A stretch of DNA of 64,000 bases from Sphingopyxis lindanitolerans (lineage in GTDB: Bacteria > Pseudomonadota > Alphaproteobacteria > Sphingomonadales > Sphingomonadaceae). The translations under genes and the position numbers were made by a program. The stretch spans positions 1,766,751 through 1,830,750 of the forward strand of contig NZ_CM009578.1 in NCBI RefSeq assembly GCF_002993885.1, in the 5' to 3' direction. Below, piece after piece: positions 1 through 14,604 of this stretch (its first letter is position 1; every line of letters begins with the position of its first letter). Under the pieces are notes generated by a model. It had not been told where the DNA came from and searched no databases. It saw nothing but the letters and a program-made list of their open reading frames with translations.

Positions 1-171
1 CAGAGCAGAATTGAGATCGGCCCGCCGTGCAATATCGGCGAGCGAAACATCAATTGATCCTCGCTCAACCATGAGATTGGCCGTTGCCTCAACCAGCCGA
101 TCGCGCGGCGGGGTTTCCGGCTCGGCTGTCTTGGCCCGTCGGCCTCTTGGTTTCATCGCAGGCGCCCTCAT
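1..171 (-). CDS. TetR-family transcriptional regulator (N-terminal part, cut by window edge)
   Basis: The minus strand opens with ATG at 171 and reads without a stop to the window edge. The 57 visible residues begin with a basic leader rich in Arg and Lys, then PRDRLVEATANLMVERG and VSLADIARRADLN. This is the first helix and the start of the helix-turn-helix of TetR repressors. An in-frame ATG five codons later could also be the start. The ligand-binding domain lies outside the window. It is outside the left ISL3 copy, so any role in controlling the cargo between the IS copies is only a possibility. Confidence 0.72.
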   Translation of the reverse strand, partial: MRAPAMKPRGRRAKTAEPETPPRDRLVEATANLMVERGSIDVSLADIARRADLNSAL

Positions 172-459
172 CGATCTCCCCAGCGCTTCCTGAATTCGGT
201 CCTGTCGTGCCGACAGGACTCAAGCATACCAGCCGCACCGGCTTTAACAATGGCATAGCGACCGCCTGGGCCGCGCGGCGATGCCAGTATTGCACTTGGA
301 GACCGCGGCGCAGTCTCGCAGGTAGACCAGGCTCGAAAATGGCTTGAGGCGATAAAAACATCTCATGCTCTGTATCAGCGGTTCCCCGAGCCGCTCCGTC
401 CTCGCTTTGCGCCACATCGCAAGATTGCCCACCTGGAGTGTGGATCGGCGTGCAAAAAG
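172..459. other. Flank of the left ISL3 copy; no intact gene
   Basis: This 288-bp stretch lies between the divergent tetR start and the ISL3 end. No complete gene is seen. From about 265 to 440 the plus strand has an open frame with protein-like composition (for example QARKWLEAIKTSHALYQR and PLRPRFAPHRKIAHLE), which may be the end of a disrupted gene. It runs into GTGTGGATCGGCGTGCAAA (438-456), which resembles the end of an IS21-type element and is mirrored on the far side of the IS copy. Confidence 0.35.
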
Positions 460-483
460 GGCTCTGACTCACTTTTGGTGCAA
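460..483. repeat. Left terminal inverted repeat of ISL3 copy 1
   Basis: 24 bp starting GGCTCTGACTCACTTTTGG; exact complement at 2095-2118. The same repeat bounds copy 2 at 12461-12484 and 14096-14119. Confidence 0.9.
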
Positions 484-525
484 GTGCGTTGATAGTGGCG
501 AGTTTCCCCGAAGGAGGACATCGCC

Positions 526-2109
526 ATGCATGGGAGAGGTTTTCGCGAAGCCATTGCGCCAATAGGATTGGTGATCGACAAGGTCGAGTATGCCGCCAAT
601 CAGATACTGATCACCGGGCGATCCCGATTTCGAGTTTCGATCTGCCCGAACTGCTGCCGCCCATCTGCGCGTGTCCACAGTCGATATCACCGTACACTCG
701 CCGATCTACCATCTCATGGCCGGCCGGTTCGGATTACTCTTGTCGCCCGGCGTTTTCGTTGCGCCACATCTCGGTGCGCCACGCGTATCTTCGTTGAACG
801 CTTTCCTCCGGATGTGGCTGCAACATTTGCCCGGCGTACGGCCCGCCTGGATTCTATCGTACATCACCTTGGGCTGGCGCTGGGTGGGCGTCCGGCGGCC
901 AGCTTGGCGCGCCGCCTTCTGATGCCGGTCAGCAAGGACACATTGCTTCGAACTGTGCGTCGGCGCTTCAAGGGCGCTCAGGTGAAGCCGACGATCATCG
1001 GCATCGACGACTGGGCGTGGAAGCGCGGACAGCGATATGGCACGATCGTCTGTGATCTGGAGCGCCGACAGATTATCGACCTCCTCCCCGATCGTGGCGT
1101 CGCCACCGTGGAAGCGTGGCTCAAGGCCCGGCCGGAGATCTGCATTATCTCGCGTGATCGCGGTGGCGGGTACCGCCATGCGGCCGCGCGGGCCTTGCCT
1201 GGCGCCCTGCAGATTGCCGATCGCTGGCATTTGATGGAGAATGCCAGCCAGGCGTTCCTCGACGCTGTCCGTAAATCTATGCGCGCCATTCGCCAGGCAC
1301 TTCAATCCGCCGAACCCGATCCAGAACTCCTCACCTGCGCTGAGCGGCTTCAATACGAAGGCTTCAAGCGGCGTCAGGATGCCGATGATACGATCCGCTC
1401 GCTGCTTGGGAAAGGGGCGTCCATCAAGGCGGTTGTTCGCGCGACCGGCTATGCCCGCAAGACCGTACGCCAGGTCGCTCGTGGCGGACGATCCGATATG
1501 TTCCGCACCCGGCTTAGCTCTCTCGACCCGTGGCTCGGGACGCTCGATGCCGAATGGCGTTCCGGTTGCCGGAATGGTGCCGAACTCTGGCGGCGGCTCA
1601 AAATCATCGGCTTTAACGGAAGCCTGCGTGTCGTTGCAGAATGGGCGACGCGGCGGAGGCGCAACGAGGCAGCTCCGAACAACGTGTCGCGCGTCATTCC
1701 ATCAGCCCGTGTGATTGCCCGGCTTATGACGATGGCCCGCGATCAACTCTCGAAATCAGAAGCCACGCTTATCGCGACGATTGAAGCCGCCGTGCCGGCG
1801 CTCGTCGTCGTTCGAAATCTTGCCGACCGATTCCACCGGATCATCAGGCAACAGAAAGACTTCGAGCTCGCCACATGGATCGACGAAGCCCGGAAAACTC
1901 CGCTTCGTTCGTTTGCGAATGGCTTGAGCGACGACTGGAATGCCGTGAAGGCCGCTATCGTGGAGCCCTGGTCCAACGGGCAAACGGAAGGACAGATCAC
2001 GAAGTTGAAGCTCGTCAAACGCCAGATGTATGGACGCGCCAAGCTCGATTTGCTGCGGGCGAGGCTGATGCCACCTCGCGATCATCCCTCTGTATTGCAC
2101 CAAAAGTGA
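526..2109 (+). CDS. ISL3-family transposase, copy 1
   Basis: A 527-residue DDE transposase that should cut and insert its own element. The N-terminus has a zinc-finger-like cysteine region (ICPNCC, then FRCATSRC) used by ISL3 transposases for DNA binding. Catalytic acidic candidates are in GIDDWAWKRG, IADRWHLMEN and WSNGQTEGQITK, the last being the highly typical ISL3 C-terminal block with the catalytic Glu. The ATG at 526 follows AAGGAGG at a suitable distance. The final residues VLHQK are encoded by the terminal repeat. The length is normal for the family and no frameshift is seen, so the element may be active. Its product is identical to that of copy 2. Confidence 0.93.
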   Translation: MHGRGFREAIAPIGLVIDKVEYAANQILITGRSRFRVSICPNCCRPSARVHSRYHRTLADLPSHGRPVRITLVARRFRCATSRCATRIFVERFPPDVAATFARRTARLDSIVHHLGLALGGRPAASLARRLLMPVSKDTLLRTVRRRFKGAQVKPTIIGIDDWAWKRGQRYGTIVCDLERRQIIDLLPDRGVATVEAWLKARPEICIISRDRGGGYRHAAARALPGALQIADRWHLMENASQAFLDAVRKSMRAIRQALQSAEPDPELLTCAERLQYEGFKRRQDADDTIRSLLGKGASIKAVVRATGYARKTVRQVARGGRSDMFRTRLSSLDPWLGTLDAEWRSGCRNGAELWRRLKIIGFNGSLRVVAEWATRRRRNEAAPNNVSRVIPSARVIARLMTMARDQLSKSEATLIATIEAAVPALVVVRNLADRFHRIIRQQKDFELATWIDEARKTPLRSFANGLSDDWNAVKAAIVEPWSNGQTEGQITKLKLVKRQMYGRAKLDLLRARLMPPRDHPSVLHQK

Positions 2110-2118
2110 GTCAGAGCC

Positions 2119-2317
2119 CCGTTTGCACGCCGATTGACACACCTGGAGCCCTTGGCGCGCGGAATGACCGCACCGCCGAGATGCAAACTTGTCATCATTT
2201 AATTAATCGAGTAATTCTAGGCTCGGACCGCGGCCGGCTCGATCCTGCGAAGATCGGGTTTTGATCCCGAATCCTGAGGCCTCGAGATGTTGAAGGTCAA
2301 AAATAGTGGAGAGACCG
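2119..2317. promoter_or_regulatory. Upstream region of the first lipocalin-like gene, with IS21-end-like sequence
   Basis: Directly after the IS comes GTTTGCACGCCGATTGACA (2121-2139), resembling an IS21-type terminal sequence with TGACA at its outer end. Further on, an AT-rich block contains TAATTA-N6-TAATTC (2200-2217), related to sites before the second lipocalin-like gene. GGAGAG just ahead of the ATG at 2318 is a good ribosome binding site. Confidence 0.4.
2200..2217. promoter_or_regulatory. TAATTA-type repeat, candidate operator A
   Basis: TAATTA, six bases (ATCGAG), TAATTC. It matches the perfect TAATTA-N6-TAATTA at 4888-4905 in half-sites and spacing. It lies 100 bp before the first lipocalin-like gene. 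The binding protein is unknown. Confidence 0.35.
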
Positions 2318-3325
2318 ATGAGCCTGTATTCTGCGATTGATTTGCCCCATCACCCTGGAAATCATCCGTTCTGGCAGGAATCCTGGGTATTGGTGTTTCG
2401 TGATCCGGACACTGGCCTCGTCGGCTTCCTGCGCACGGGATCCTATGTGAATCAGAAGACCACGCAGACGCATTGGGGGATGGCATTCCCCGACGGAACC
2501 CGCTTCCGTCGCCACCTGCTCGACCGTCCTCTGGAGGCAGGCGATCGAACCGATGTCATGGCCAGTTCCGGAACGATGCGATTCACGATTCCCGATATGG
2601 AATATTGTCGCTTCGAGGCGTTCGACGACGATGCGGAAGCGGACCTGCGCATCTATGATTGGTATCCTTCGCAGGAATGGGAGGTGGTCGGAGGACCGGG
2701 TCATGGAACATTGACTTCGGGAGGCGACGATCATGGCCACCCGGAAAGCGCCGGCCGGGTGGAAGGCCGCGTCCGGATCGGCGACCGGGTGGTCACGATC
2801 GAGAATGGCATCGGCTACCGCGATCATGGCTACGGACCGCGCCCGCTACCGATGTTTCGCTCGGCGCGCTGGCATGCCGGCACGGTGGGCGAGAAGCTGA
2901 GCTACTCGCTGCTCACGATGCAGGCCGAGGATGGCGCCTTCGCCAAGATGGGCTATGTGATGCTCGATGGAAAGCGCGAGCCTATCCGGGATTTCCATAC
3001 CGTCAATTGCACGCTGGGCGACGGCCTCTCGTCGATCGGCGGCTGGACTGTGGCGCAGCTCGAGAACGGCCAGACCCTTCGTATCGACGTCGAAGCTGTC
3101 GATGGCGTCGTGACTTCCACAGACCTCAACAATGGCGGTCCGAACTCTTCTCCGGCAGGGATCGAAGTTCTGTCTATCCCCAGGTGGCAAGGCCTGGAGG
3201 GCGTGTGCGATTTCAACATGATCGATAATGCCCATCGCGGCAATCAGGCGGTGTCGCACCTCTTTCTCGCCAACACGAACGACGGAATTTCCCAGCGGGG
3301 ATTTGACCCCTCCTGGCTCCGCTAA
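2318..3325 (+). CDS. CrtC/AttH lipocalin-like protein, paralogue 1
   Basis: A 335-residue protein of a poorly described family related by motif to the AttH/carotenoid-hydratase (CrtC) lipocalin-like fold (DUF7064/7065-type). The N-terminus has HPFWQES (residues 16-22), shared with the two paralogues at 4968 and 7142. The mid-protein signature YRDHGYGPR (167-175) is the family's RDHSWG block in a variant form. No signal peptide or membrane segment is seen, so it is probably cytoplasmic. It converges on the kinase gene at 3448. ATG 2318 was chosen over GTG 2306 because GGAGAG sits just before it. The reaction is unknown; a hydratase, isomerase or lipid-binding role is inference from fold only. 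Confidence 0.7.
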   Translation: MSLYSAIDLPHHPGNHPFWQESWVLVFRDPDTGLVGFLRTGSYVNQKTTQTHWGMAFPDGTRFRRHLLDRPLEAGDRTDVMASSGTMRFTIPDMEYCRFEAFDDDAEADLRIYDWYPSQEWEVVGGPGHGTLTSGGDDHGHPESAGRVEGRVRIGDRVVTIENGIGYRDHGYGPRPLPMFRSARWHAGTVGEKLSYSLLTMQAEDGAFAKMGYVMLDGKREPIRDFHTVNCTLGDGLSSIGGWTVAQLENGQTLRIDVEAVDGVVTSTDLNNGGPNSSPAGIEVLSIPRWQGLEGVCDFNMIDNAHRGNQAVSHLFLANTNDGISQRGFDPSWLR

Positions 3326-3333
3326 AAAAGGCA

Positions 3334-3364
3334 GGCGACCGCATATGTAACTGCTGCGGTCGCC
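3334..3364. terminator. Inverted repeat between converging genes, possible terminator
   Basis: GGCGACCGCA (3334-3343) pairs with TGCGGTCGCC (3355-3364) across an 11-base loop, just after the first lipocalin-like gene. There is no clear T tract on either side, so termination is uncertain. Confidence 0.4.
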
Positions 3365-3447
3365 GCAGCCGCAAGGACTCGCGATCTCGCGAGCGTCGCA
3401 GTGCGGAGAGGACGCTCGGGGTCGAGCGAACAAGTGGACCCTAAATT

Positions 3448-4584
3448 TCAGTCGATCGTGCCCGACGGCGGCAGCAAAATCTCCAGTCCGACCCTGGCGG
3501 CCAAATCCGCGGCGATCTTCGGCCCGCGTTCGATGACTGGCAACAACTGGCGCAATATGGGCTCCGGGAAATGCCGGAACGTCAGCACGTTGATGACCGC
3601 CAGCCGATAGGCCGTAAACAGCTCGAAATAGGGCATGTTGCGAAGCTTGCGCCCCGACAGTCGCTCATATTCTGCAATCCGCTGCTGATAACTCAGCGTC
3701 CCTTCCAGAGCCGGGACATCATTCTGGATGATCTGGTCGCCCATATGCGTGAAACAGACATCGCATTCGGGCGTCCCGAGAAAGCTCATCTCCCAATCGA
3801 CCACGGCCGACACCGCAGTCCCGAGATAGAGATAATTGCCGAAGTTCGCGTCGCCATGACACAGGACCGTATCAATGTCGGCCGGCTCATTTGCGACAAG
3901 CCAATCCCGGAGCGGTCGCAGCGCTTCGAGATAGGGCTTGCAGTCGGCATATTCGAGCGAATCCCAATACCAATTTACCTCGCGCTCGATCGGACGCGCA
4001 CCCGCCGCGCGCTTTTCCAGCCATTCGAGCCCGAGCGCCCGCCAGTCCAGCGCATGCACGCGCGCGAGCGCTTCGAGATAGCCCAGTTGCATCTCGCGCC
4101 GCGCTGCCGGCTCAGCGTCGGCGATGATGCCCGAAGTCATCCAGGTCATCGGCGCGCTCGCCCCCTCGACCATTCCCATCACATAGCCCGGGCGACCGAG
4201 AAGGTTGCCGTCCGGATCGAGCCAGATCTGTGGCGGAACCGGCACATCGGTGGCTTCAAGCGCGCGCTGCAGGTTGAACTGCGCGGTGACGTCATAGGCG
4301 TGGAACAGGCCGCGCGTCGGCATGAAACGCAAGACGAGACCCGACGAGCGCGGCTCGCCGTCTTCGGTCCAGCTTGCCTCGAACAGAAGAGTTCCGTTCG
4401 AACCACCCGCAGCTGTGCCGACTTCGCGCACGTTGGCGACTCGGACGTCCGAGACTCCCGCCTGCGCGCCGATAAACTGCATGAGCCGGTCGCCCCATTG
4501 ATCGGGAGTGGTTTCGGCGAACCGCGCACCACGCTGATGCTTGACGATAGCTGCGCCAATCTGATCGACATCGAGTTCCGACAT
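3448..4584 (-). CDS. APH/ChoK-family phosphotransferase, kinase 1
   Basis: A 378-residue kinase of the aminoglycoside-phosphotransferase fold, of the group that includes the kinase domains of ACAD10/ACAD11 and bacterial LvaA. The nucleotide-loop region is GGSNGTLLFEA (about 60-70). The catalytic loop is HGDANFGN (His243, Asp245, Asn250), followed by the metal-binding DWE (Asp263). These are all the residues expected of an active kinase. ATG 4584 is preceded by GGGAGAG. The gene is divergent from the second lipocalin-like gene across 383 bp. Known relatives phosphorylate hydroxyl groups on acyl-CoAs, sugars or choline; the substrate here is unknown, and an antibiotic-resistance role is unlikely given the neighbours. 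Confidence 0.82.
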   Translation of the reverse strand: MSELDVDQIGAAIVKHQRGARFAETTPDQWGDRLMQFIGAQAGVSDVRVANVREVGTAAGGSNGTLLFEASWTEDGEPRSSGLVLRFMPTRGLFHAYDVTAQFNLQRALEATDVPVPPQIWLDPDGNLLGRPGYVMGMVEGASAPMTWMTSGIIADAEPAARREMQLGYLEALARVHALDWRALGLEWLEKRAAGARPIEREVNWYWDSLEYADCKPYLEALRPLRDWLVANEPADIDTVLCHGDANFGNYLYLGTAVSAVVDWEMSFLGTPECDVCFTHMGDQIIQNDVPALEGTLSYQQRIAEYERLSGRKLRNMPYFELFTAYRLAVINVLTFRHFPEPILRQLLPVIERGPKIAADLAARVGLEILLPPSGTID

Positions 4585-4967
4585 GACTCTCCCGTTTCTG
4601 TTCTGCCGCGCGGCCGGCTCTCGACCGCAGGTTGGCGCCCATCGCCCAGGCGGGATCCTCGGGCGATCATCCGCGGTGCTCGAACGATTGTGCCATGTTT
4701 CGTGACCGCAGACGACGCTCCCGCAACGAGGGCGAAGCACCATCGGGCCCATTGAGCAGCGAAAGTCAACGGATAATTAATTGAATACCTAAAAAATTCG
4801 TGGCGCGTGCCCGCTGCCCGCTCCTCCGCCGCAACGCACCGTTAAACCCGCCGCAGCAGCAGCCCTGTTGACGGCGGAAAGAAAATATAATTAGCTGCGT
4901 AATTAATGAACGAACGATTCCCGGGTTTCGAGGAATCGCGCGCAATGCGCAATGAAGGGAGGAGGCC
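4585..4967. promoter_or_regulatory. Divergent promoter region of kinase 1 and lipocalin-like gene 2
   Basis: A 383-bp region without a convincing gene. It is clearly more AT-rich than its surroundings between about 4765 and 4915. It holds a partial TAATTA repeat (4774-4791) and the perfect repeat at 4888-4905, 114 bp apart, which could allow one regulator to control both directions. Confidence 0.45.
4888..4905. promoter_or_regulatory. TAATTA-N6-TAATTA, candidate operator C
   Basis: Two TAATTA hexamers separated by GCTGCG. Each hexamer is itself a palindrome and their spacing is 12 bp, a little over one helical turn. It lies 63 bp before the ATG at 4968. Relatives lie at 2200-2217 (one mismatch) and 4774-4791 (degenerate second half). 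Confidence 0.4.
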
Positions 4968-5975
4968 ATGGAAATTTCGAAACTGTCACCGCTGCCGGAT
5001 GATGTCGAGCTTCCGCACGATCCTGGGGAAGATCCGCAATGGCAGGAAAGCATTGTCCTTGGCTGGGCCGATCCCTCCCAGGAAATCGGCGGCTTCATCC
5101 GGATCGGCCATCAACCGATCCTCGGCCTTACCCGGTCCTGCTTTGGCGTGACCTCGCGTAACGGGCTCAACTATTCCCGCACAGCTGAAGGGCTTCCTCT
5201 TCGCGAAGCCGACCGGACCGTCGACACGTTCCATGCCGATGGTTTCCAGTCCGCCACATTCGGCGTCCGCTCAAGCCGGTGGCGTGCCAGCGACGAGAAT
5301 GTCGATCTCGATATCCAGGTCCGCGATGTGCACGCACCCTATGATTTCTGGGACCTCACTGGCATGCGGAACGAAACGAGCCGCGTGATGGCAGCCAATC
5401 ATCTCCAGGCCGGCGGCACTTTTTCGGGGTCCGTTCGAATCGGCGATGAGCCCGAGCGCGCCATTTCGGGCTTTACTTATCGCGACCATAGCTGGGGCCC
5501 ACGGCACATGGATAACCCCAATGCCGACATGTATGCCGCCTGGTGGCTCGTGGGCTCGCTTGGTGAGGATTTTTCTTTTGGCTTCGGCGGCGGGCGCATG
5601 CGCTCCGGGCTCGAAAGTCTTTTCGGCTATATCGTAAAGGATGGCGAAGTGGACACCGCCGTGATCGAGGATGCGTCCGTGCTGATGGCATTTGACGGGC
5701 TATCCAATCGGGGCGGAACCGTCGTGGCCGTTTCGGAAAAATTTGGCCGGCTGACGTTCGAGGCCGAAGGATATGGCAATGTCTGGCTTGAACTTGGTCA
5801 GAAGCATTTCGAGATGGCGATGCCATGCACAATACGTTGCGGCAATCGCACGGGCGGTGGCCTCATCGACACGATCTTGAACCCACGCAATGGAACCGAT
5901 CGTCCGACCTTCGTGGCGAGCGGCAGACTCGACAACGGTCTTTACCGCAGCCGGGCCGGGTTGAATCATCCATGA
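4968..5975 (+). CDS. CrtC/AttH lipocalin-like protein, paralogue 2
   Basis: 335 residues, the same family as the genes at 2318 and 7142. It has DPQWQES near residues 22-28 and the best-preserved signature, YRDHSWGPR (171-179). The matching ends and length show duplication of one ancestral gene followed by strong divergence. No signal peptide is seen. ATG 4968 is preceded by GGGAGGAGG, a strong ribosome site. Its stop codon overlaps the start of kinase 2 (ATGA at 5972-5975), so the two should be translated together, which suggests they act on the same substrate in consecutive steps. Confidence 0.72.
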   Translation: MEISKLSPLPDDVELPHDPGEDPQWQESIVLGWADPSQEIGGFIRIGHQPILGLTRSCFGVTSRNGLNYSRTAEGLPLREADRTVDTFHADGFQSATFGVRSSRWRASDENVDLDIQVRDVHAPYDFWDLTGMRNETSRVMAANHLQAGGTFSGSVRIGDEPERAISGFTYRDHSWGPRHMDNPNADMYAAWWLVGSLGEDFSFGFGGGRMRSGLESLFGYIVKDGEVDTAVIEDASVLMAFDGLSNRGGTVVAVSEKFGRLTFEAEGYGNVWLELGQKHFEMAMPCTIRCGNRTGGGLIDTILNPRNGTDRPTFVASGRLDNGLYRSRAGLNHP

Positions 5976-7102
5976 GCGGCGCGCAGACGATCGACCGCGA
6001 GGCGATGCGGACAGGCCTTCAGGCCTGGCTGCGGCAGAAATTCGCCGAACTGGGCGACCTGACCTTGTCGCCCCTGCGTTTTCCCAGCGGCACGGGTAAC
6101 TCCGCTGAAACGATGTTCGCTACCATGGCTTATGAAGCCGATGGCGAACATCGTGAACGCGCACTCGTCATCAGGCGACAACTCGCTGGGACGGACCTTT
6201 TCCTTGACGCCGATATCAGGCTGCCGCACCGGATGATGGAGGCGCTCGCGCTCCACCCCCATATTCCTGCCCCGCGCGCGCTCGGTGTCGAACCCGACCC
6301 GGCGCCGATCGGGAGCCCCTTCCTCGTGATGGAGGCGATCGAAGGACGGGTCGTTGACCAGGTGCCGAATTATAACGTCGAAGGGTGGCTCGCCGATTTG
6401 CCGATCGAACAGCGACGCGAGATATGGCTGCGAGCGATCGGAACGCTGGCGCGGCTCCACCGGATCGACTGGCGGCAAGGCTTTTCCTTTCTGGACGACC
6501 GCCAGCGGGGCGAACCCGGCATCGATCAGTTCCTTGCCTGGACCAGAGACTGGTATATCTGGGCCAAAGCTGGTCGCCGGCTCGAAGTTGCCGACGCCGC
6601 CCTCGACTATCTCATGGCAAACAAGCCCCGGGACACCGATGTCAGCGTCCTTTGGGGCGATCCGACACCTGCCAATATGATGTTCGGACCCGACCTCAGC
6701 GTAGCAGCCCTGATCGACTTCGAAATGGCTTCCCTCGGTCCCGGCGAAGCAGATCTCGCGTGGTGGCTCGAGGCCGAGGAAAATTTCTCGACGCTGTCGG
6801 GGGTAGCGCGGCTCGAGGGTCTGCCAAGCCGCGCCGAGATCATCGCCCATTACGAAGCCGAACGCGGTCGGCCGGTTGCCGATCTGGACTATTATTCGAT
6901 GCTCGCCTGGTTCCGCATGAACATCGTGGGAATTCGCTTCTCGGATCGCCTCGTCGGCGAAGGGCGGATGCCAGCGGGGACGGACGTGCTGACAAACAAT
7001 CCCGCGACGATGCTGATGGCGCGCAAACTCGGTATGCCGGACGCATCGCCGGGCGAAGGTTTCATGGCGATGGTCAATGGTATGGCCGGTGCGGGGGCGT
7101 GA
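5972..7102 (+). CDS. APH/ChoK-family phosphotransferase, kinase 2 (HGD replaced by WGD)
   Basis: 376 residues, same fold as kinases 1 and 3. The nucleotide-loop region is SGTGNSAETMF (about 39-49). The catalytic loop reads LWGDPTPANMMF: the usual His is Trp228, while catalytic Asp230 and Asn235 are kept. The metal site is DFE (Asp249) instead of DWE. The ATG at 5972 overlaps the stop of the lipocalin-like gene by four bases, which fixes the start. Loss of the His is seen in some acyl-CoA-type members of this superfamily, so activity is still likely. Substrate unknown. Confidence 0.8.
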   Translation: MSGAQTIDREAMRTGLQAWLRQKFAELGDLTLSPLRFPSGTGNSAETMFATMAYEADGEHRERALVIRRQLAGTDLFLDADIRLPHRMMEALALHPHIPAPRALGVEPDPAPIGSPFLVMEAIEGRVVDQVPNYNVEGWLADLPIEQRREIWLRAIGTLARLHRIDWRQGFSFLDDRQRGEPGIDQFLAWTRDWYIWAKAGRRLEVADAALDYLMANKPRDTDVSVLWGDPTPANMMFGPDLSVAALIDFEMASLGPGEADLAWWLEAEENFSTLSGVARLEGLPSRAEIIAHYEAERGRPVADLDYYSMLAWFRMNIVGIRFSDRLVGEGRMPAGTDVLTNNPATMLMARKLGMPDASPGEGFMAMVNGMAGAGA

Positions 7103-7141
7103 TCTTTAGTCATTACAAACAGAAAAGAAGGGATTGAGGTA

Positions 7142-8143
7142 ATGGAAGCCGTGTTCTCGGATCATTGGGATTGCCCGCACCAGTTCAGCGACGAACCTAG
7201 CTGGCAGGAGAGCGATTGCTACTGGTTCTATGATGTCAAATTGGGCGTGGGAGGCTTCCATCGCATCGGCCAGAAGCCGAACAAGGGCACGGGCCAGCTG
7301 ATGCTGTTCGTCTTCAAGACGGGCGGTGAACGATTTGTCCTCAACAGCGCCCCGCGCAACGAGGTACAATTGGGTGCGGACGCGCGCCAGTCCCGCAAGC
7401 AGGTCGTTGGCAGCCACACGGCCGAGGCTCTCGGCGACGGCAGGATGCGCTACACTTGGGACGAGCCTGAGTCTTCGGCTGATATCGAATTCTACGAGAG
7501 CTTCTATACACCGCGCAACTGGCCGTCGGGCAAGAATACAGAGCATTTCGAAGAAGCTACCAATTCCGATGGTCACCTCGAATGCGGCGGCCGCATTCGC
7601 GGGAAAGTCCGAATTGGCGACAATGAATATGAAATTGACGCTCTTGCCCATCGCGACCGGTCATGGGGGAAGCGCAGCGACAGCGCGCCCATGATGCATC
7701 GATATCGCATGTACACCGGCACCTGTGGTTCCGAACTCAGCTTCGCGGGCTTCTTTCTCGATTTCAACGAAACGACCCCGATGACAATGGGCTTCGTCGA
7801 TCGCAACGGCAAGCAGGAGGCGATCACCAACCTGCGGGTTGCCGTGACTTTTGATTATGATGGCCTGACTCCGCTCGGGAGCATCGGCATCATGACGCTT
7901 GAGTCCGGCGAGCAGCTCAGGATCGAATCCAAGGTCGTTCAGGGGTTCCTCACACCTCTGCCGGCGATGGGCACATTCTCGCAGGACAATATCTCGACCT
8001 TTGAATATGGCGGGAAAACAGGGTTCGTCGATCTCGAAATGTGCACGAACCCTGGCCGGGGTTCATATATCCCGAACCAGGCGGACGTCAGTTTTCTTGC
8101 GATTGCCGAGGGGCTCAGCAAGGCCGAGGATTATATTATTTGA
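7142..8143 (+). CDS. CrtC/AttH lipocalin-like protein, paralogue 3
   Basis: 333 residues, third member of the family. It has EPSWQES (about 18-24) and the signature HRDRSWGKR (170-178), in which the usual His after Asp is Arg. It follows kinase 2 after 39 bp on the same strand, so genes 4968, 5972 and 7142 probably form one transcript. A purine-rich AAGGGATTGAGG precedes the ATG. Its transcript ends at a strong shared hairpin (8251-8282). The changed residue in the signature may mark a different substrate or a non-catalytic partner. Confidence 0.72.
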   Translation: MEAVFSDHWDCPHQFSDEPSWQESDCYWFYDVKLGVGGFHRIGQKPNKGTGQLMLFVFKTGGERFVLNSAPRNEVQLGADARQSRKQVVGSHTAEALGDGRMRYTWDEPESSADIEFYESFYTPRNWPSGKNTEHFEEATNSDGHLECGGRIRGKVRIGDNEYEIDALAHRDRSWGKRSDSAPMMHRYRMYTGTCGSELSFAGFFLDFNETTPMTMGFVDRNGKQEAITNLRVAVTFDYDGLTPLGSIGIMTLESGEQLRIESKVVQGFLTPLPAMGTFSQDNISTFEYGGKTGFVDLEMCTNPGRGSYIPNQADVSFLAIAEGLSKAEDYII

Positions 8144-8250
8144 ATCGACGTGGGTTGCCGGCGCCCGGAAAAGGCGCCGGCACGGCGACGCCCAACCGGC
8201 AATCGCGTTTGAGAATGCGCGAAAGTGCCGGACCCGATGCTAATGATAGA

Positions 8251-8282
8251 GGGGCCGCGCAGCTGGCAAGCTGCGCGGCCCC
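8251..8282. terminator. Bidirectional hairpin terminator
   Basis: A perfect 14-bp stem, GGGGCCGCGCAGCT (8251-8264) with AGCTGCGCGGCCCC (8269-8282), loop GGCA. It sits between the converging ends of the 7142 gene and the 8340 gene. T runs are weak on both sides, but the stem is very stable. Confidence 0.7.
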
Positions 8283-8339
8283 TGTCCATTGTGTTGCTTC
8301 TCGGGCCGGGTGCTGTCCGCCATGCCCCGATCCGCGGCG

Positions 8340-9437
8340 TCAATCGCCGTATATGCGTTTCGCGTTGGCGAGTTCGGCATGAAGGTGGGCGAGATAATAG
8401 GTCCAGACCTGTTCGAAGGCTGGCTGGAAGCTCCGCCCCGATAGCAGGATGCACTGCGTCTTGAAGAGAGGAAACAGTTTGAAAAAGTCATAATGTTCCG
8501 CCGGAGCGCCGGCCTCTTCCTCGAACCGAGCAAGATATTCTGCCTCGGTCGGTGTCCCGTCGACATGCTTGTCGAGCTGTTTCATCGTCTCGGTGAGGAA
8601 GACGATGAGCGCAAGGTCGGCCTCATTATGGCCGAGATAGGCGAGTTCCCAATCGAGCACAGCCGCAAGCCGCCCGTCGCGAAACATCACATTCGCGATC
8701 TGGGAATCGCCCTGTACAAGCGTTCCCTCGCGAACGGCTGGCTGGTGCGCGACCATCCAGCGGTGAGCCTCGACGATGGGGTCGAGCTTCGGATCGTCCG
8801 GCTCGGAGCTTAGTTTTGCTTCCGCGAGGAACCAGTTGAGTTCGCGTTCGATATCGGTTTCACCGCTGCCGCGCGCGAGCAGATGCGGCAGTTCCTCGCG
8901 ACCGATCGCCTCGCGGCGCAGGCGACCATGAAAGCCAGCGGCTTCAAGCATCATCGCCTTGCGCGCTTCCGGACTGACGTCGGCGAGCGGCCCCTTGGAG
9001 TACATTGCGGACGCGGGAGGCGTGCCCTCGATCCGCGCCATGACGAAGGACGGATAGCCGACAGCCGAACCGTCCGCGTCAAGCCATAGCGGCTCGGGCA
9101 CGGGCAGACCGCGCTTGTATGCCGCGACGAGAGTCAGGAACTCGTCAGAAAAGCTCTTCTGCTTGATCATGGTCGTGCCAGGCGCGTAACGCGCGACCAT
9201 GTCTTCCCGGCGACGCTCGCCGCTCCGCCCGAACTCGGCCGTGAACAACAGAATGCCGTTGCTGGCACCGGATGATTGCGGGACAATGAAATTGCTGAGC
9301 GTGACGGGGCCTTCGATGCCGGGCTGCGCAGCAATGAAGGCTGCCAGCCGATCTGCGTCAATTTCCGGGTAGCCCGACTTCGCAGCCGCGACCGACTTGT
9401 CGTAGAACCCCTGCAATTCTTCAGTTTCCGCACTCAT
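8340..9437 (-). CDS. APH/ChoK-family phosphotransferase, kinase 3 (HGD replaced by QGD)
   Basis: 365 residues. The nucleotide-loop region is SSGASNGILLFTA (about 55-67), strongly like kinase 1. The catalytic loop is VQGDSQIANVMF, with Gln242 in place of the usual His and catalytic Asp244 and Asn249 kept. The metal site is DWE (Asp262). It lies 67 bp behind the TonB-dependent receptor on the same strand, so receptor and kinase are probably co-transcribed, linking substrate import to phosphorylation. Substrate unknown. Confidence 0.8.
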   Translation of the reverse strand: MSAETEELQGFYDKSVAAAKSGYPEIDADRLAAFIAAQPGIEGPVTLSNFIVPQSSGASNGILLFTAEFGRSGERRREDMVARYAPGTTMIKQKSFSDEFLTLVAAYKRGLPVPEPLWLDADGSAVGYPSFVMARIEGTPPASAMYSKGPLADVSPEARKAMMLEAAGFHGRLRREAIGREELPHLLARGSGETDIERELNWFLAEAKLSSEPDDPKLDPIVEAHRWMVAHQPAVREGTLVQGDSQIANVMFRDGRLAAVLDWELAYLGHNEADLALIVFLTETMKQLDKHVDGTPTEAEYLARFEEEAGAPAEHYDFFKLFPLFKTQCILLSGRSFQPAFEQVWTYYLAHLHAELANAKRIYGD

Positions 9438-9504
9438 TTCAAATCAACTTTCCGTGTTCAATATTCTTCGGCGACGGGCCGGCCCGCAGGCCGGCCCTGG
9501 TGCC

Positions 9505-11745
9505 TCAGCGGATTTTCAGTGCCAGTTCCACACCATAGGTGCGTGGCGGATTATAGACCCCCGTGACCCCATTGAGCTGCACCACAGTCCCCTGGATATA
9601 ATTTGTCTTGGTGATGTTCCGGACAAAGCCACGCACGGTGACCAATTCATTGGGTTCGTACGTCACGAATGCATTATACAGTTCATATGCATTCTGCCGC
9701 AGCGAGGGATCATTATATTCGCGGAGGCGGTATCCGCTTGTGAAATAGGCCTCGCCGCGAAGCGTGATCTTGCCCGAGCCGACGGGAAATTCGAGTTGCG
9801 TGCCGATCGTACCGGACGCACCCGGAGCCTTGTTGAGAGCCCGTCCCGCCAAATCGGTACCATCGGGCTCGCCAAAGATCGCGCCACCCGTCGACAGGAA
9901 GCGCTTATATTCGCTGTGTACGAAGCTCGCGTTGCCATCGAAGCTCAGCATATCATTGACCTGCAGCCGCCCGTCGATGTCCAGCCCGTAGATCTCGCTT
10001 TTCGGAGCGCCTACGACATTGGTCCCGAATATCGTCGACTGCTCGACCGAGATATTCTTGTAATCATAGTAGAAGGCCGAGAGGTTAAGCGTCGCACGCC
10101 TGTCAAGAAACCGCGTCTTGAGTCCCGTCTCGATGGCGTTGACCGTTTCCGGTTTATACTGATTGCCGCAGGTACTGTTGGAAAAGCCGCCGGACTTGTA
10201 CCCACGCGACAACTGCCCATAGGCCATGACATCGTCCGACAGATCATGCTGCAGGCCTATGCGTCCCGTAGCCGACCAGTCGGTCACGCGCTGAAGCGGT
10301 GCGCCCGGACTGCAATCGGTCTGAACGACCGTGCCGCCGGGAAGCTGGAACGTCACCAACAGATCATTTTGCGACCGCTCGTAAAGACCCCGGACGCCAC
10401 CAAACAGCCGGGTAGCGTCGCTCACGCTGATCGTGGCATCTGCGAATATGGAGGCGCTTTCGCGCTTCGAGCGGCCGTTGGACACACGGATGAGTGCGGA
10501 CGGGCTGCCAAGCAGCCGTCCGTCGAGGGTAACTGAGCCGGTCGTTCGGTTGATTTCATTATAGTAAAAGGCCCCCACCAGCCAGTCCACCGGCCCACTG
10601 TCGCCCTTGAGGTTGAATTCCTGTGAGAAGGTCGAAACCCGGACACCCTGGGCGATCGGAATGGTCAGATTTGCAAAGATCGGGTCATTCGGATTTCCTT
10701 GCGCCAACGAGTCCAGCGAATTGTAATTGACGCGCAGGCGAGAAGCGCCGGTGATCGAGACAAGATTTACGTTGCCGCCGAGATCGAACGTGTTTTTCAG
10801 CGATGCCAGCGCGATGGACCGATTGCCGTCAAAAATGAGCGGTGAGTTCAACCGGCGAGGGGTGACGATCGTATCCTGGATCGGCAAGGACAGGCGGTTG
10901 AGGTCATAGGGCTGACGCACCGGGCCGTTGCTGGCTTCGCGCCGGTAGGTCAGGCGCGCTTCCATATCCCACCCGGGCGACACGTCGGCGTCGATACCGA
11001 AACGGCCACCGATGTAGCGCAGATCGTCGAGATCCTGGCCGGTCTGGAGATTCTTGACATAGCCATCGCGTTGGCCACCTTCGATGTAGAGCCGCGCGCG
11101 CACTCCGTCGCTAAGCGGGCCGCTGACATAAGCCGAGCCTTTGAGGTCGTCATAATTCCCGTAGCCCGCCGTAACGCCCGCTTCGAACTCGCGGGTAGGC
11201 GCCGCCGATATGAAGTTGACGATACCCGCCGTGGAATTCTTGCCGTAAAGTGTCCCTTGCGGGCCACGCAGCACTTCGATCCCGCCAAGGTCGAACTGGC
11301 CGAGGCCAGCGCCCTGAGGGCTCGAAAGATAGACGCCGTCGAGATGCAAGGAGACCGAATTTTCGCCCGCGCCGGTCGTGAAGGTGGTGCCGACGCCGCG
11401 AATGGAAATGTTGGAGTTGCCGGAAACAGGGTCGAACTTGAGGCCCGCAACCGCCCCCTGAAGCTCTTCAAGACCGCCAATCTGGCGATCCTCGATCATG
11501 CCCGCGTCGAGCGCGTTAATTACTGCAGGAACATCTTGGAGATTCTGGGACCGCTTCTGAGCTGTCACAATAATTTCGTTTAGCCCCGTCGAACTTCCAT
11601 CGGTGTTGGCCGAGGCATCACGGCTTGCTGGCGCCTCGCTTCCCTCGATAGTGTCAGCCGCGCTGGCAGACGTCGATACACCGAGCATGATGCCCGCCAT
11701 TGCCAACGCGGACACTGTGGCAAGCTGGTTTGATCGATTAATCAC
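9505..11745 (-). CDS. TonB-dependent outer-membrane receptor of the cargo
   Basis: 746 residues. A signal peptide is visible (about 1-29, ending TSASAA). It is followed by a TonB-box-like NEIIVTAQKR, a plug domain with SIRGVGTTF and EVLRGPQGTLYGKNSTAG, and a long C-terminal beta-barrel ending in YGVELALKIR. This is the typical large receptor that sphingomonads use for organic substrates rather than iron alone. The start is GTG 11745, with GGGAGAG eight bases before it. It heads the transcript that continues into kinase 3. Ligand unknown; given its partners, a terpenoid, steroid or other hydrophobic molecule is plausible but unproven. Confidence 0.9.
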   Translation of the reverse strand: MINRSNQLATVSALAMAGIMLGVSTSASAADTIEGSEAPASRDASANTDGSSTGLNEIIVTAQKRSQNLQDVPAVINALDAGMIEDRQIGGLEELQGAVAGLKFDPVSGNSNISIRGVGTTFTTGAGENSVSLHLDGVYLSSPQGAGLGQFDLGGIEVLRGPQGTLYGKNSTAGIVNFISAAPTREFEAGVTAGYGNYDDLKGSAYVSGPLSDGVRARLYIEGGQRDGYVKNLQTGQDLDDLRYIGGRFGIDADVSPGWDMEARLTYRREASNGPVRQPYDLNRLSLPIQDTIVTPRRLNSPLIFDGNRSIALASLKNTFDLGGNVNLVSITGASRLRVNYNSLDSLAQGNPNDPIFANLTIPIAQGVRVSTFSQEFNLKGDSGPVDWLVGAFYYNEINRTTGSVTLDGRLLGSPSALIRVSNGRSKRESASIFADATISVSDATRLFGGVRGLYERSQNDLLVTFQLPGGTVVQTDCSPGAPLQRVTDWSATGRIGLQHDLSDDVMAYGQLSRGYKSGGFSNSTCGNQYKPETVNAIETGLKTRFLDRRATLNLSAFYYDYKNISVEQSTIFGTNVVGAPKSEIYGLDIDGRLQVNDMLSFDGNASFVHSEYKRFLSTGGAIFGEPDGTDLAGRALNKAPGASGTIGTQLEFPVGSGKITLRGEAYFTSGYRLREYNDPSLRQNAYELYNAFVTYEPNELVTVRGFVRNITKTNYIQGTVVQLNGVTGVYNPPRTYGVELALKIR

Positions 11746-12186
11746 TTCAGTCTCTCCCTTCCCATTCGCGCGTCTCGGCGCGCATCCTTATTTTTGCGGG
11801 CTGTGATCTTTGAGGCGCAGACATGCAGCGTGCCCAGCGGCTAAGCGGTAGGCGCCGCACACCCGGCTAAAATCTTCAAAAATATATGATTTTCCATCCT
11901 CCCGTCGACTAGCTCAAGCCAGCCCCGAAACCCGCATAGTTTCAACTGGTCTGCGCCAGCATTCAGGCATAAATCCCCCAAGTGGTCATAATTGTCAATA
12001 TAATAACGTTTTCTCCCAGTTTGCTTTTCAATTCGCCCCTTGAGTCGGGCTGATTGATCGGAAAATGAAGTTTGATCGCAACCCCGCAAAGCGCTCGATC
12101 CTGATTTGCCGGCAGACTTGTCCGCGCCGGAAACGCAGCATCCGCCACATCAGAAATGGCAACACGCCGCTAAGAGGGACCTGGGC
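11746..12186. other. Upstream region of the TonB receptor; no gene seen
   Basis: About 440 bp. It should hold the receptor's promoter (minus strand). AT-rich stretches occur around 11875-11890 and 11985-12015. No protein-like open frame of convincing length is seen on either strand, and no TAATTA-N6-TAATTA site was found. Degraded mobile-element sequence probably begins after about 12060. Confidence 0.4.
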
Positions 12187-12418
12187 CGGCAAGATCGGGA
12201 CCTTGGCAAAGCAGTTGTTACGGCTCGACCTGATGCTGCTCGATAAGCTTGGATATCCGCCCTTCAGACGAAGGGAGGGCGCTGCTCCCTCTGATCAGCA
12301 AGGCCTATGAGCGCTTCAGTGTGCACATCACTACAAACCCCGCGTTAGCAGACTGGCCCATCATCTTCGGTGATCCCAAGATGACTACGGCGCTGCTCGA
12401 CCGCGCGATCTCGTCAGG
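12187..12418 (+). pseudogene. istB-like ATPase remnant (frameshifted)
   Basis: The plus strand encodes GTLAKQLLRLDLMLLDKLGY (from about 12197), then in another frame LISKAYERFSVHITTNPA and [16 protein letters not shown]. This is the middle to C-terminal part of the IS21-family helper ATPase IstB. The first and second parts are in different frames, with the shift near 12265-12285, and the N-terminal P-loop is absent. It is related to, but clearly different from, the istB piece at 14257, so it comes from another IS21-type element. Confidence 0.75.
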
Positions 12419-12439
12419 ACCGGGGAGGAAAGCCAGCGA

Positions 12440-12460
12440 TGTCAAACGGCGTTCAAAAGG
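12440..12460. repeat. IS21-type end-like sequence interrupted by ISL3 copy 2
   Basis: TGTCAAACGGCGTTCAAAAGG resembles the TGT-starting ends of IS21-type elements and the sequences beside ISL3 copy 1 (ATCGGCGTGCAAA). Across ISL3 copy 2 it continues as GAAGAGGGACCCC, which lies downstream of the minus-strand istB. The ISL3 copy therefore appears to have landed inside the terminal region of that element. Confidence 0.45.
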
Positions 12461-14119
12461 GGCTCTGACTCACTTTTGGTGCAATACAGAGGGATGATCG
12501 CGAGGTGGCATCAGCCTCGCCCGCAGCAAATCGAGCTTGGCGCGTCCATACATCTGGCGTTTGACGAGCTTCAACTTCGTGATCTGTCCTTCCGTTTGCC
12601 CGTTGGACCAGGGCTCCACGATAGCGGCCTTCACGGCATTCCAGTCGTCGCTCAAGCCATTCGCAAACGAACGAAGCGGAGTTTTCCGGGCTTCGTCGAT
12701 CCATGTGGCGAGCTCGAAGTCTTTCTGTTGCCTGATGATCCGGTGGAATCGGTCGGCAAGATTTCGAACGACGACGAGCGCCGGCACGGCGGCTTCAATC
12801 GTCGCGATAAGCGTGGCTTCTGATTTCGAGAGTTGATCGCGGGCCATCGTCATAAGCCGGGCAATCACACGGGCTGATGGAATGACGCGCGACACGTTGT
12901 TCGGAGCTGCCTCGTTGCGCCTCCGCCGCGTCGCCCATTCTGCAACGACACGCAGGCTTCCGTTAAAGCCGATGATTTTGAGCCGCCGCCAGAGTTCGGC
13001 ACCATTCCGGCAACCGGAACGCCATTCGGCATCGAGCGTCCCGAGCCACGGGTCGAGAGAGCTAAGCCGGGTGCGGAACATATCGGATCGTCCGCCACGA
13101 GCGACCTGGCGTACGGTCTTGCGGGCATAGCCGGTCGCGCGAACAACCGCCTTGATGGACGCCCCTTTCCCAAGCAGCGAGCGGATCGTATCATCGGCAT
13201 CCTGACGCCGCTTGAAGCCTTCGTATTGAAGCCGCTCAGCGCAGGTGAGGAGTTCTGGATCGGGTTCGGCGGATTGAAGTGCCTGGCGAATGGCGCGCAT
13301 AGATTTACGGACAGCGTCGAGGAACGCCTGGCTGGCATTCTCCATCAAATGCCAGCGATCGGCAATCTGCAGGGCGCCAGGCAAGGCCCGCGCGGCCGCA
13401 TGGCGGTACCCGCCACCGCGATCACGCGAGATAATGCAGATCTCCGGCCGGGCCTTGAGCCACGCTTCCACGGTGGCGACGCCACGATCGGGGAGGAGGT
13501 CGATAATCTGTCGGCGCTCCAGATCACAGACGATCGTGCCATATCGCTGTCCGCGCTTCCACGCCCAGTCGTCGATGCCGATGATCGTCGGCTTCACCTG
13601 AGCGCCCTTGAAGCGCCGACGCACAGTTCGAAGCAATGTGTCCTTGCTGACCGGCATCAGAAGGCGGCGCGCCAAGCTGGCCGCCGGACGCCCACCCAGC
13701 GCCAGCCCAAGGTGATGTACGATAGAATCCAGGCGGGCCGTACGCCGGGCAAATGTTGCAGCCACATCCGGAGGAAAGCGTTCAACGAAGATACGCGTGG
13801 CGCACCGAGATGTGGCGCAACGAAAACGCCGGGCGACAAGAGTAATCCGAACCGGCCGGCCATGAGATGGTAGATCGGCGAGTGTACGGTGATATCGACT
13901 GTGGACACGCGCAGATGGGCGGCAGCAGTTCGGGCAGATCGAAACTCGAAATCGGGATCGCCCGGTGATCAGTATCTGATTGGCGGCATACTCGACCTTG
14001 TCGATCACCAATCCTATTGGCGCAATGGCTTCGCGAAAACCTCTCCCATGCATGGCGATGTCCTCCTTCGGGGAAACTCGCCACTATCAACGCACTTGCA
14101 CCAAAAGTGAGTCAGAGCC
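12461..14119 (-). mobile_element. ISL3-family insertion sequence, copy 2 (inverted)
   Basis: 1,659 bp with the same 24-bp terminal repeats as copy 1 (12461-12484 and 14096-14119), transposase reading leftwards. Size and encoded protein equal copy 1. No perfect target duplication (TCAAAAGG on the left, GAAGAGGG on the right). It separates an IS21-type end from the istB fragment at 14257. Confidence 0.9.
12470..14053 (-). CDS. ISL3-family transposase, copy 2
   Basis: 527 residues, identical in sequence to the product at 526-2109, with the same cysteine-rich N-terminus and the same catalytic blocks (GIDDWAWKRG, IADRWHLMEN, SNGQTEG). No stop or frameshift is seen. Full identity of the two copies means recent duplication or ongoing gene conversion, and both could supply transposase for the whole bracketed region. 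Confidence 0.93.
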   Translation of the reverse strand: MHGRGFREAIAPIGLVIDKVEYAANQILITGRSRFRVSICPNCCRPSARVHSRYHRTLADLPSHGRPVRITLVARRFRCATSRCATRIFVERFPPDVAATFARRTARLDSIVHHLGLALGGRPAASLARRLLMPVSKDTLLRTVRRRFKGAQVKPTIIGIDDWAWKRGQRYGTIVCDLERRQIIDLLPDRGVATVEAWLKARPEICIISRDRGGGYRHAAARALPGALQIADRWHLMENASQAFLDAVRKSMRAIRQALQSAEPDPELLTCAERLQYEGFKRRQDADDTIRSLLGKGASIKAVVRATGYARKTVRQVARGGRSDMFRTRLSSLDPWLGTLDAEWRSGCRNGAELWRRLKIIGFNGSLRVVAEWATRRRRNEAAPNNVSRVIPSARVIARLMTMARDQLSKSEATLIATIEAAVPALVVVRNLADRFHRIIRQQKDFELATWIDEARKTPLRSFANGLSDDWNAVKAAIVEPWSNGQTEGQITKLKLVKRQMYGRAKLDLLRARLMPPRDHPSVLHQK

Positions 14120-14256: not shown

Positions 14257-14604
14257 TCAGCTGCGGTTTTTGAAGCGCCAGCTGTCGTTGCCCGTCTCGA
14301 TGATATCGCAGTGGTGGGTGACGCGGTCGAGCAGCGCCGTAGTCATCTTGGGATCACCGAAGACGGTGGGCCACTCGCCGAAGGCGAGGTTGGTGGTGAT
14401 GATGACGCTGGTGCGCTCATAAAGCTTGCTGATGAGGTGGAACAGCAACTGCCCTCCGGAGCGGGCGAACGGCAGATAACCGAGCTCGTCGAGCACGATC
14501 AGGTCGAGCCGCGACAGCTGCGCCGCCAGGGTCCCGCCCTTGCCGATCCGGGTCTCCTCTTCGAGGCGTGTCACCATCGACGCGAGCCTTTGTGCCGTGG
14601 GCAC
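14257..14604 (-). pseudogene. istB-like ATPase, N-terminally truncated
   Basis: About 115 residues matching the C-terminal half of Ist[21 protein letters not shown], the Walker B-type [26 protein letters not shown] and [19 protein letters not shown], with a natural stop. The usual length is about 240-260 residues. The N-terminal half with the P-loop is missing; the sequence beyond about 14610 no longer matches. The istA partner is absent. It is non-functional debris and marks the right edge of the accessory island. Confidence 0.8.

What the first reader, a model, noticed from the sequence alone, without database searches (positions are those of the whole stretch)
2318..11745. Undescribed pathway: three kinases, three lipocalin-like paralogues and a TonB receptor
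The genes alternate lipocalin-like/kinase/lipocalin-like/kinase/lipocalin-like/kinase/receptor. One pair overlaps by four bases and the receptor is in line with kinase 3. Kinases of this fold include the ACAD10/11 and LvaA type that phosphorylate hydroxyacyl-CoAs, and the partner family is related to CrtC, a hydratase of isoprenoid double bonds. A cycle in which water is added to a C=C bond and the new hydroxyl is phosphorylated, to be eliminated or isomerised later, fits the pairs, but it is only a hypothesis. I know of no described system with this set.
Basis: partly seen in the sequence, partly recalled or inferred. Interest (0 to 1): 0.82.

Follow-up and report, generated by a model that had tools for sequence, protein, structure and literature searches.

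The report
Kinase-lyase pairs for removing hindered hydroxyls
The six alternating genes look like sets of an enzyme pair that removes a hard-to-oxidise hydroxyl group by first phosphorylating it and then ejecting the phosphate, a trick known from a cholesterol-eating anaerobe, here in a Sphingopyxis-type bacterium on DNA that appears to have been shared recently between species.

Summary
In detail: three DUF7065/DUF7064 proteins (LIP1-3), three APH-fold kinases (KIN1-3) and a TonB receptor lie at 2306-11745; LIP2/KIN2 overlap by four bases. It is not wholly undescribed. A profile of 58 family members matches 25-phosphosteroid lyase (25-PSL) at E 7.8e-34. The kinases match Rv3168 and 25-hydroxysteroid kinase (25-HSK) best. 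Together 25-HSK and 25-PSL dehydrate a tertiary alcohol at the cost of ATP. The Asp of the RDHSWG motif is invariant in 58 of 58 and reads Asn in the product-bound 25-PSL entry. So the partner is most likely a phospholyase, not a hydratase. Pairing is conserved: 46 of 71 family genes in relatives have a same-strand kinase within 200 bp, about 1% expected. The seven genes end a >=51 kb catabolic island, 99% identical in four other Sphingopyxis genomes beside DNA 80-88% identical. The substrate is unknown; a polyhydroxylated isoprenoid is my guess. 50 of 58 members match NCBI's 'Rv3169 family', so Rv3168-Rv3169 may be such a pair too.

The parts
2306..3325 (+). LIP1, DUF7065/DUF7064 protein, putative phospho-alcohol lyase (motif variant RDHGYGPR at residue 172)
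   Evidence: PF23212 8.4e-22, PF23213 5.1e-13
3448..4752 (-). KIN1, APH-fold kinase of the 25-HSK/Rv3168 kind; likelier start at 4584
   Evidence: PF01636 5.5e-23; 25-HSK chain 9fsg E 5.6e-34
4968..5975 (+). LIP2, DUF7065/DUF7064 protein, putative phospho-alcohol lyase; RDHSWGPR at residues 172-179, D173 invariant
   Evidence: (model pLDDT 92.7)
5972..7102 (+). KIN2, APH-fold kinase; start ATG overlaps the LIP2 stop codon by four bases
7142..8143 (+). LIP3, DUF7065/DUF7064 protein, putative phospho-alcohol lyase (RDRSWGKR, the same RDRSWG as 25-PSL)
8340..9437 (-). KIN3, APH-fold kinase of the 25-HSK/Rv3168 kind
9505..11745 (-). TonB-dependent receptor, 67 bp upstream of KIN3 on the same strand
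460..2146 (+). ISL3-family element, left copy (transposase 526-2109); exact inverted repeat of 12433-14119; this site is empty in four other Sphingopyxis genomes
12433..14119 (-). ISL3-family element, right copy (transposase 12470-14053); site empty in two relatives, other sequence there in a third
1..171 (-). 5' part of a TetR regulator gene (G000:C1:1766265-1766921), the next gene of the same cluster to the left

Best explanation
KIN1-3 and LIP1-3 are kinase/phospholyase sets that carry out ATP-dependent dehydration of hindered, probably tertiary, hydroxyl groups. The kinase moves the gamma-phosphate of ATP onto the hydroxyl; the lipocalin-fold lyase then takes a proton from the neighbouring carbon, with the Asp of RD-x-SWG as a likely acid/base, and expels phosphate, leaving a C=C bond. 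Hydroxyls that cannot be oxidised and that block beta-oxidation are removed in this way. The genes sit at the right end of a >=51 kb catabolic island of a Sphingopyxis-type bacterium that also encodes a P450 close to P450terp, alcohol and aldehyde dehydrogenases, an AMP-binding (CoA ligase type) enzyme, acyl-CoA dehydrogenases, enoyl-CoA hydratases, a thiolase, two further kinases and a second TonB receptor; the receptors would bring the compound in. Shown: families, motif conservation, homology to 25-HSK and 25-PSL, conserved pairing, island. Inferred: activity, direction, and which kinase serves which lyase. Guessed: the substrate, an isoprenoid with several tertiary alcohols.
For: Profile of 58 family members (the window's three among them) against PDB sequences: 25-PSL E 7.8e-34 and 9.5e-32, next AttH 6e-5, kievitone hydratase 0.0084. 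Foldseek: the five best hits of the LIP2 model are 25-PSL chains, E 3.3e-13 to 1e-11. D173 is identical in 58 of 58; in the printed alignments the 9fzn/9g2i chain reads RDRSWG and the 9g4c chain, with phosphate and desmost-1,4-diene-3-one, reads RNRSWG (titles). Kinases: KIN1 best is 25-HSK (5.6e-34), KIN2 and KIN3 best are Rv3168 then 25-HSK, KIN5 likewise; GD....N and D(W/F)E are present in all five kinases of the cluster. Pairing: 46 of 71 family genes have a same-strand kinase within 200 bp, 54 of 71 within 600 bp; 0 of 20 control stretches hold one. The kinase chemistry is documented for 25-HSK (PMC8449060, parts 1-3 of 5 read). Cluster content.
Against: LIP2 alone and a narrow profile (22 sequences) find no PDB chain at E<=1 and E<=10; the link to 25-PSL runs through the wider family. 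By structural Z AttH (24.9) scores above 25-PSL (22.4), and kievitone hydratase (21.7) and pericyclases (about 21) are close, so the fold does not discriminate. LIP1 departs from the motif (S to G, W to Y). The KIN2 model is poor (pLDDT 63.7). Only LIP2/KIN2 overlap; KIN1 and KIN3 are on the opposite strand from the LIPs next to them. Distances of 45 paired LIPs and kinases agree across genomes (r 0.78, 0 of 5000 permutations) but not clearly among pairs inside one genome (r 0.15, 539 of 5000 permutations reach it). 12 of 71 relatives' genes had no kinase in the stretch fetched (some stretches end at contig ends), and 7 of 20 full-length Rv3169-type loci had none within 1.5 kb. Gaps use the first possible start codon and so lean short.
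Confidence: 0.72

Rival explanations
1. Hydratase model: the LIPs are CrtC/kievitone-hydratase-type enzymes that add water to C=C bonds, and the kinases phosphorylate the new hydroxyl.
Against: The sequence profile prefers 25-PSL by about 30 orders of magnitude of E-value over kievitone hydratase. Pfam does not give CrtC for LIP1-3 at E<=0.001.
Confidence: 0.1
2. The kinases act on hydroxyacyl-CoAs (ACAD10/11 or LvaA kind) and the LIPs isomerise, bind or dehydrate phosphoacyl-CoAs.
For: Two ACAD11 entries are among the six PDB matches of each of KIN1-3; acyl-CoA dehydrogenases, an AMP-binding enzyme and enoyl-CoA hydratases are in the same island. KIN4 lies beside an SDR and an acyl-CoA dehydrogenase gene.
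Against: ACAD11 scores 53, 33 and 43 bits against 121, 126 and 81 for the best 25-HSK/Rv3168 match of KIN1, KIN2, KIN3.
Confidence: 0.12
3. The LIPs are carriers or binding proteins for hydrophobic compounds, without catalysis, and the kinases modify or detoxify foreign compounds.
For: Lipocalin-like barrels often bind hydrophobic ligands (general knowledge); a PDB molecule name of 25-HSK is 'aminoglycoside phosphotransferase-like protein'.
Against: An Asp invariant in 58 of 58 at the position that differs in the product-bound 25-PSL entry; catabolic neighbourhood.
Confidence: 0.06

Closest known systems
25-hydroxysteroid kinase / 25-phosphosteroid lyase (25-HSK/25-PSL) of Sterolibacterium denitrificans (that the PDB entries come from this species is inferred)
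   Same: Same two protein families, kinase GD....N and D(W/F)E motifs, and the RD-x-SWG core motif; the surroundings here look catabolic and hold a P450 close to P450terp.
   Different: In S. denitrificans one kinase gene serves several sterols, no lyase candidate lay near it, and hydroxylation is oxygen-independent (PMC8449060, parts 1-3 of 5 read). Here three lyase-like genes and four kinases with 25-HSK/Rv3168 as best match (KIN1, 2, 3, 5) lie together, one pair overlapping, with a P450. Identity in structural alignment is low: 14% LIP2 to 25-PSL, 22-24% KIN2 to 25-HSK/Rv3168.
Rv3168-Rv3169 operon of Mycobacterium tuberculosis
   Same: Kinase next to a protein of this family: 50 of 58 family members here match NCBI's Rv3169 family at E<=0.001; KIN2 and KIN3 match the Rv3168 structure best.
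   Different: One pair, under the TetR-type repressor Rv3167c (PMC5340868, passages read); no biochemical function was given in the passages seen. LIP2 and LIP3 score far below the NCBI cut-off (about 28 against 150 bits), LIP1 not at E<=0.001.
CrtC / kievitone hydratase / AttH and fungal lipocalin-like Diels-Alderases
   Same: Fold.
   Different: Weak sequence scores (AttH 6e-5, kievitone hydratase 0.0084) and, for those with known function, other chemistry.

Membership tests
25-phosphosteroid lyase family (DUF7065/DUF7064, Rv3169 family) | Sequence homology over most of the chain | tested here: met
   Profile of 58 members, 25-PSL E 7.8e-34 over chain residues 17-353 of 362; LIP1-3 over Pfam cut-offs for both domains. 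LIP2 alone finds nothing.
25-phosphosteroid lyase family (DUF7065/DUF7064, Rv3169 family) | Asp of the RD-x-SWG motif | tested here: met
   D in LIP1, LIP2, LIP3 and in 58 of 58; that this Asp is catalytic is inferred from the Asn in the product-bound entry.
25-phosphosteroid lyase family (DUF7065/DUF7064, Rv3169 family) | Phosphate elimination from a tertiary phosphoester | not testable with these tools
   Needs an assay.
25-hydroxysteroid kinase / Rv3168 kind | Closest solved relative by sequence is 25-HSK or Rv3168, ahead of ACAD11 | tested here: met
   KIN1, KIN2, KIN3, KIN5; KIN4 not tested.
25-hydroxysteroid kinase / Rv3168 kind | Kinase motifs GD....N and D(W/F)E | tested here: met
   All five kinases; that these are the catalytic residues of the APH fold is recalled.
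25-hydroxysteroid kinase / Rv3168 kind | Phosphorylates tertiary steroid alcohols | not testable with these tools
   Needs an assay.
CrtC-type hydratases | Membership by sequence | tested here: inconclusive
   Pfam gives DUF7065/DUF7064 and not CrtC for LIP1-3 at E<=0.001; the profile score for a CrtC-domain protein is marginal, E 0.0084.
ACAD10/11 hydroxyacyl-CoA kinases | Closest solved relative by sequence is ACAD11 | tested here: not met
   ACAD11 ranks fourth (KIN1), fifth (KIN2), third (KIN3), fourth (KIN5); KIN4 not tested.
NCBI Rv3169 subfamily (NF053593) | Score over 150 bits | tested here: not met
   LIP2 27.6 and LIP3 27.9 bits, LIP1 no match at E<=0.001: related, but not this subfamily.

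The most novel reading that the evidence does not exclude
DUF7065/DUF7064 (the Rv3169 family) as a whole is a class of phospho-alcohol lyases that, with Rv3168-type kinases, form a general two-enzyme ATP-dependent dehydratase, spread across Alphaproteobacteria and mycobacteria and not limited to anaerobic sterol degraders. In this island three such sets strip several tertiary hydroxyls from one polyhydroxylated isoprenoid (for example an ecdysteroid with its 14-, 20- and 25-hydroxyls, a cucurbitacin or a dammarane; these structures are recalled), an aerobic route, and the route travels between Sphingopyxis species as one block.
Probability: 0.4. Interest if true: 0.8.

Novelty: new variant of a known kind. 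Interest (0 to 1): 0.64.

Why it matters
It gives a testable function to two Pfam domains of unknown function and to APH-fold kinases beside them. The pair Rv3168-Rv3169 of M. tuberculosis, without a biochemical role in the passages I saw, would fall in the same class. [quoted passage not shown] Tertiary alcohols are a bottleneck in breaking down steroids, terpenoids and many pollutants (general knowledge).

Tried and rejected

Led nowhere: papers with DUF7064 or DUF7065, 0; papers naming 9FSG, 9FT5, 9FU5 or 9O56, 0; aminoglycoside phosphotransferase with tertiary alcohol and three further terms, 0; Sphingopyxis with steroid/terpenoid terms, 0; ecdysteroid degradation, 20 papers of which 10 were listed, none of the ten by title on bacteria. 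Two papers name 25-phosphosteroid lyase (PMC8449060, PMC11061730), one of them again; a search on ATP-dependent dehydration gave PMC8449060 and PMC7411048. The publication behind entries 9fzn/9g2i/9g4c was not seen. CrtC family in the own genome: no match, but no control rang either. (genome as file) was not available.
Full report
WHAT IS THERE. The window lies in G000:C1:1766751-1830750, a genome of Sphingopyxis kind (the nearest named records are Sphingopyxis). One search shows the seven frames. Pfam assigns LIP1-3 to DUF7065+DUF7064 and KIN1-3 to APH, all above cut-off. The order is LIP1> <KIN1 LIP2> KIN2> LIP3> <KIN3 <receptor. LIP2 ends and KIN2 begins in the four bases ATGA, 5972-5975. 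LIP3 follows KIN2 by 39 bp. The receptor precedes KIN3 by 67 bp on one strand. So LIP2-KIN2-LIP3 looks like one operon and receptor-KIN3 like another (inference from spacing); LIP1 and KIN1 stand alone and face each other.

THE KNOWN CHEMISTRY. In S. denitrificans 25-HSK phosphorylates the tertiary C25 hydroxyl, and a lyase eliminates phosphate to give the delta-24 alkene (PMC8449060, parts 1-3 of 5 read; PMC11061730 passages; PMC7411048 abstract). In 2021 the lyase gene was unknown and no candidate lay near the kinase gene.

CONSERVED PAIRING. DUF7065 was found in 24 of 199 genomes of the family, the own included. I fetched 60 stretches around the hits (three hits on short contigs of G152 and the three of the window were left out). 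In them are 71 family genes; 46 of 71 have a same-strand kinase within 200 bp, 54 of 71 within 600 bp, and 12 of 71 have none in the stretch. From the APH counts of the 24 genomes about 1% would be expected within 200 bp (rough estimate). Twenty control stretches from four of these genomes hold no such kinase and no LIP. The narrower Rv3169 model matches 21 of 398 genomes of a phylum sample, DUF7065 only 2 of 398, the own included in both. Of the 20 full-length Rv3169-type loci 13 have an APH-like kinase within about 1.5 kb, some with low scores (24-62 bits); with two more loci scanned it is 15 of 22. 50 of 58 LIPs match the Rv3169 model at E<=0.001. Rv3168-Rv3169 is an operon next to the repressor gene Rv3167c (PMC5340868 passages). 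The window's genome has two more LIP-family genes, at C1:838.8 kb and C1:1467.8 kb, each beside an APH gene.

THE ISLAND. To the left, outside the window, lie TetR regulators, TonB receptor 2 and KIN5, an AsnC-type regulator, an amidohydrolase, SDRs, KIN4, four acyl-CoA dehydrogenases, alcohol dehydrogenases, enoyl-CoA hydratases, a P450, a nitronate-monooxygenase-like gene, an aldehyde dehydrogenase (a second by eye), an AMP-binding enzyme, a thiolase, a thiolase-like/enoyl-CoA hydratase fusion and a CoA transferase. The P450 is closest to P450terp (436 bits) and 3tkt (408 bits); that these are CYP108 is recalled. Four other Sphingopyxis genomes hold C1:1728264-1779200 at 99.2-99.7% identity without the ISL3 copies (two of them match at least as far left as 1706761, where the fetched stretch ends), while DNA to the right, from window 16796 on, is 80-88% identical in the two relatives where 700 bp or more aligned. 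GC is 0.58-0.62 up to about 15 kb and 0.64-0.69 beyond. In a genus sample 5 of 80 genomes, the own included, carry LIP3 at 100% as rounded by the tool, and each also shows LIP1 and LIP2 matches beside it; 21 of 80 have any match. So the set appears to have spread as one block, which supports one pathway.

OTHER RELATIVES. One search gave 13 loci. Beside the three near-identical ones, seven (L036-L042: Novosphingobium, Sphingopyxis, a Caulobacteraceae genome) are 38-40% identical to LIP2 and have a KIN3-like kinase directly upstream of the LIP; five of the seven also have a P450 45-46% identical to ours with a TonB receptor next to it, and five have an amidohydrolase like ours within the 20 kb. 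Of the remaining three, L043 and L044 have kinase matches within about 1.5 kb, L045 has none.

MECHANISM AND SUBSTRATE. Shown: families, motif, pairing, island. Inferred: ATP-dependent phosphorylation and phosphate elimination. Guess: several tertiary alcohols on one isoprenoid. The own genome has three KshA_C matches (best 1.6e-58), so steroid ring breakdown elsewhere in it is possible. No substrate is established. KIN4 next to an SDR and an acyl-CoA dehydrogenase may be the ACAD10/11 kind (recalled, not tested).

VERDICT. The finding is real and the pairing conserved. It is a new variant of a known kind, not an unknown kind.

Noticed in passing
G000:C1:1728264-1779200, window 1-12461 included: A block of at least 51 kb is 99.2-99.7% identical in four other Sphingopyxis genomes, beside DNA of 80-88% identity and higher GC: apparently a recently shared genomic island.
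   Followed up: partly
window 460-2146 and 12433-14119: Two identical inverted ISL3 copies, not seen in the fetched stretches of four relatives; they bracket the seven genes and could in principle move or invert them.
   Followed up: partly
window 12269-12405 and 14322-14458: Inverted 137-nt repeat, 80% complementary, around the right ISL3 copy; the frame at 14257-14604 reads like an IS21-type ATPase remnant (by eye).
   Followed up: no
G000:C1:1467778-1468824 (L137): A full-length Rv3169-type gene (373 bits) with an APH-like gene directly after it, apart from the island.
   Followed up: partly
L042:15122-17278, also read in L036 and L040 by eye: A molybdopterin oxidoreductase gene near the kinase/LIP pair in relatives; steroid C25 hydroxylases of S. 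denitrificans are molybdenum enzymes too, but whether this one is related was not tested.
   Followed up: no
G000:C1:1204615-1205208, 1198670-1199254 and 563383-563982: KshA_C-type oxygenase matches, a hint that the strain may open steroid rings.
   Followed up: no
L062:9067-11256 (G094): Two LIP-family frames called on opposite strands with overlapping ends beside a kinase, perhaps a divergent pair.
   Followed up: no
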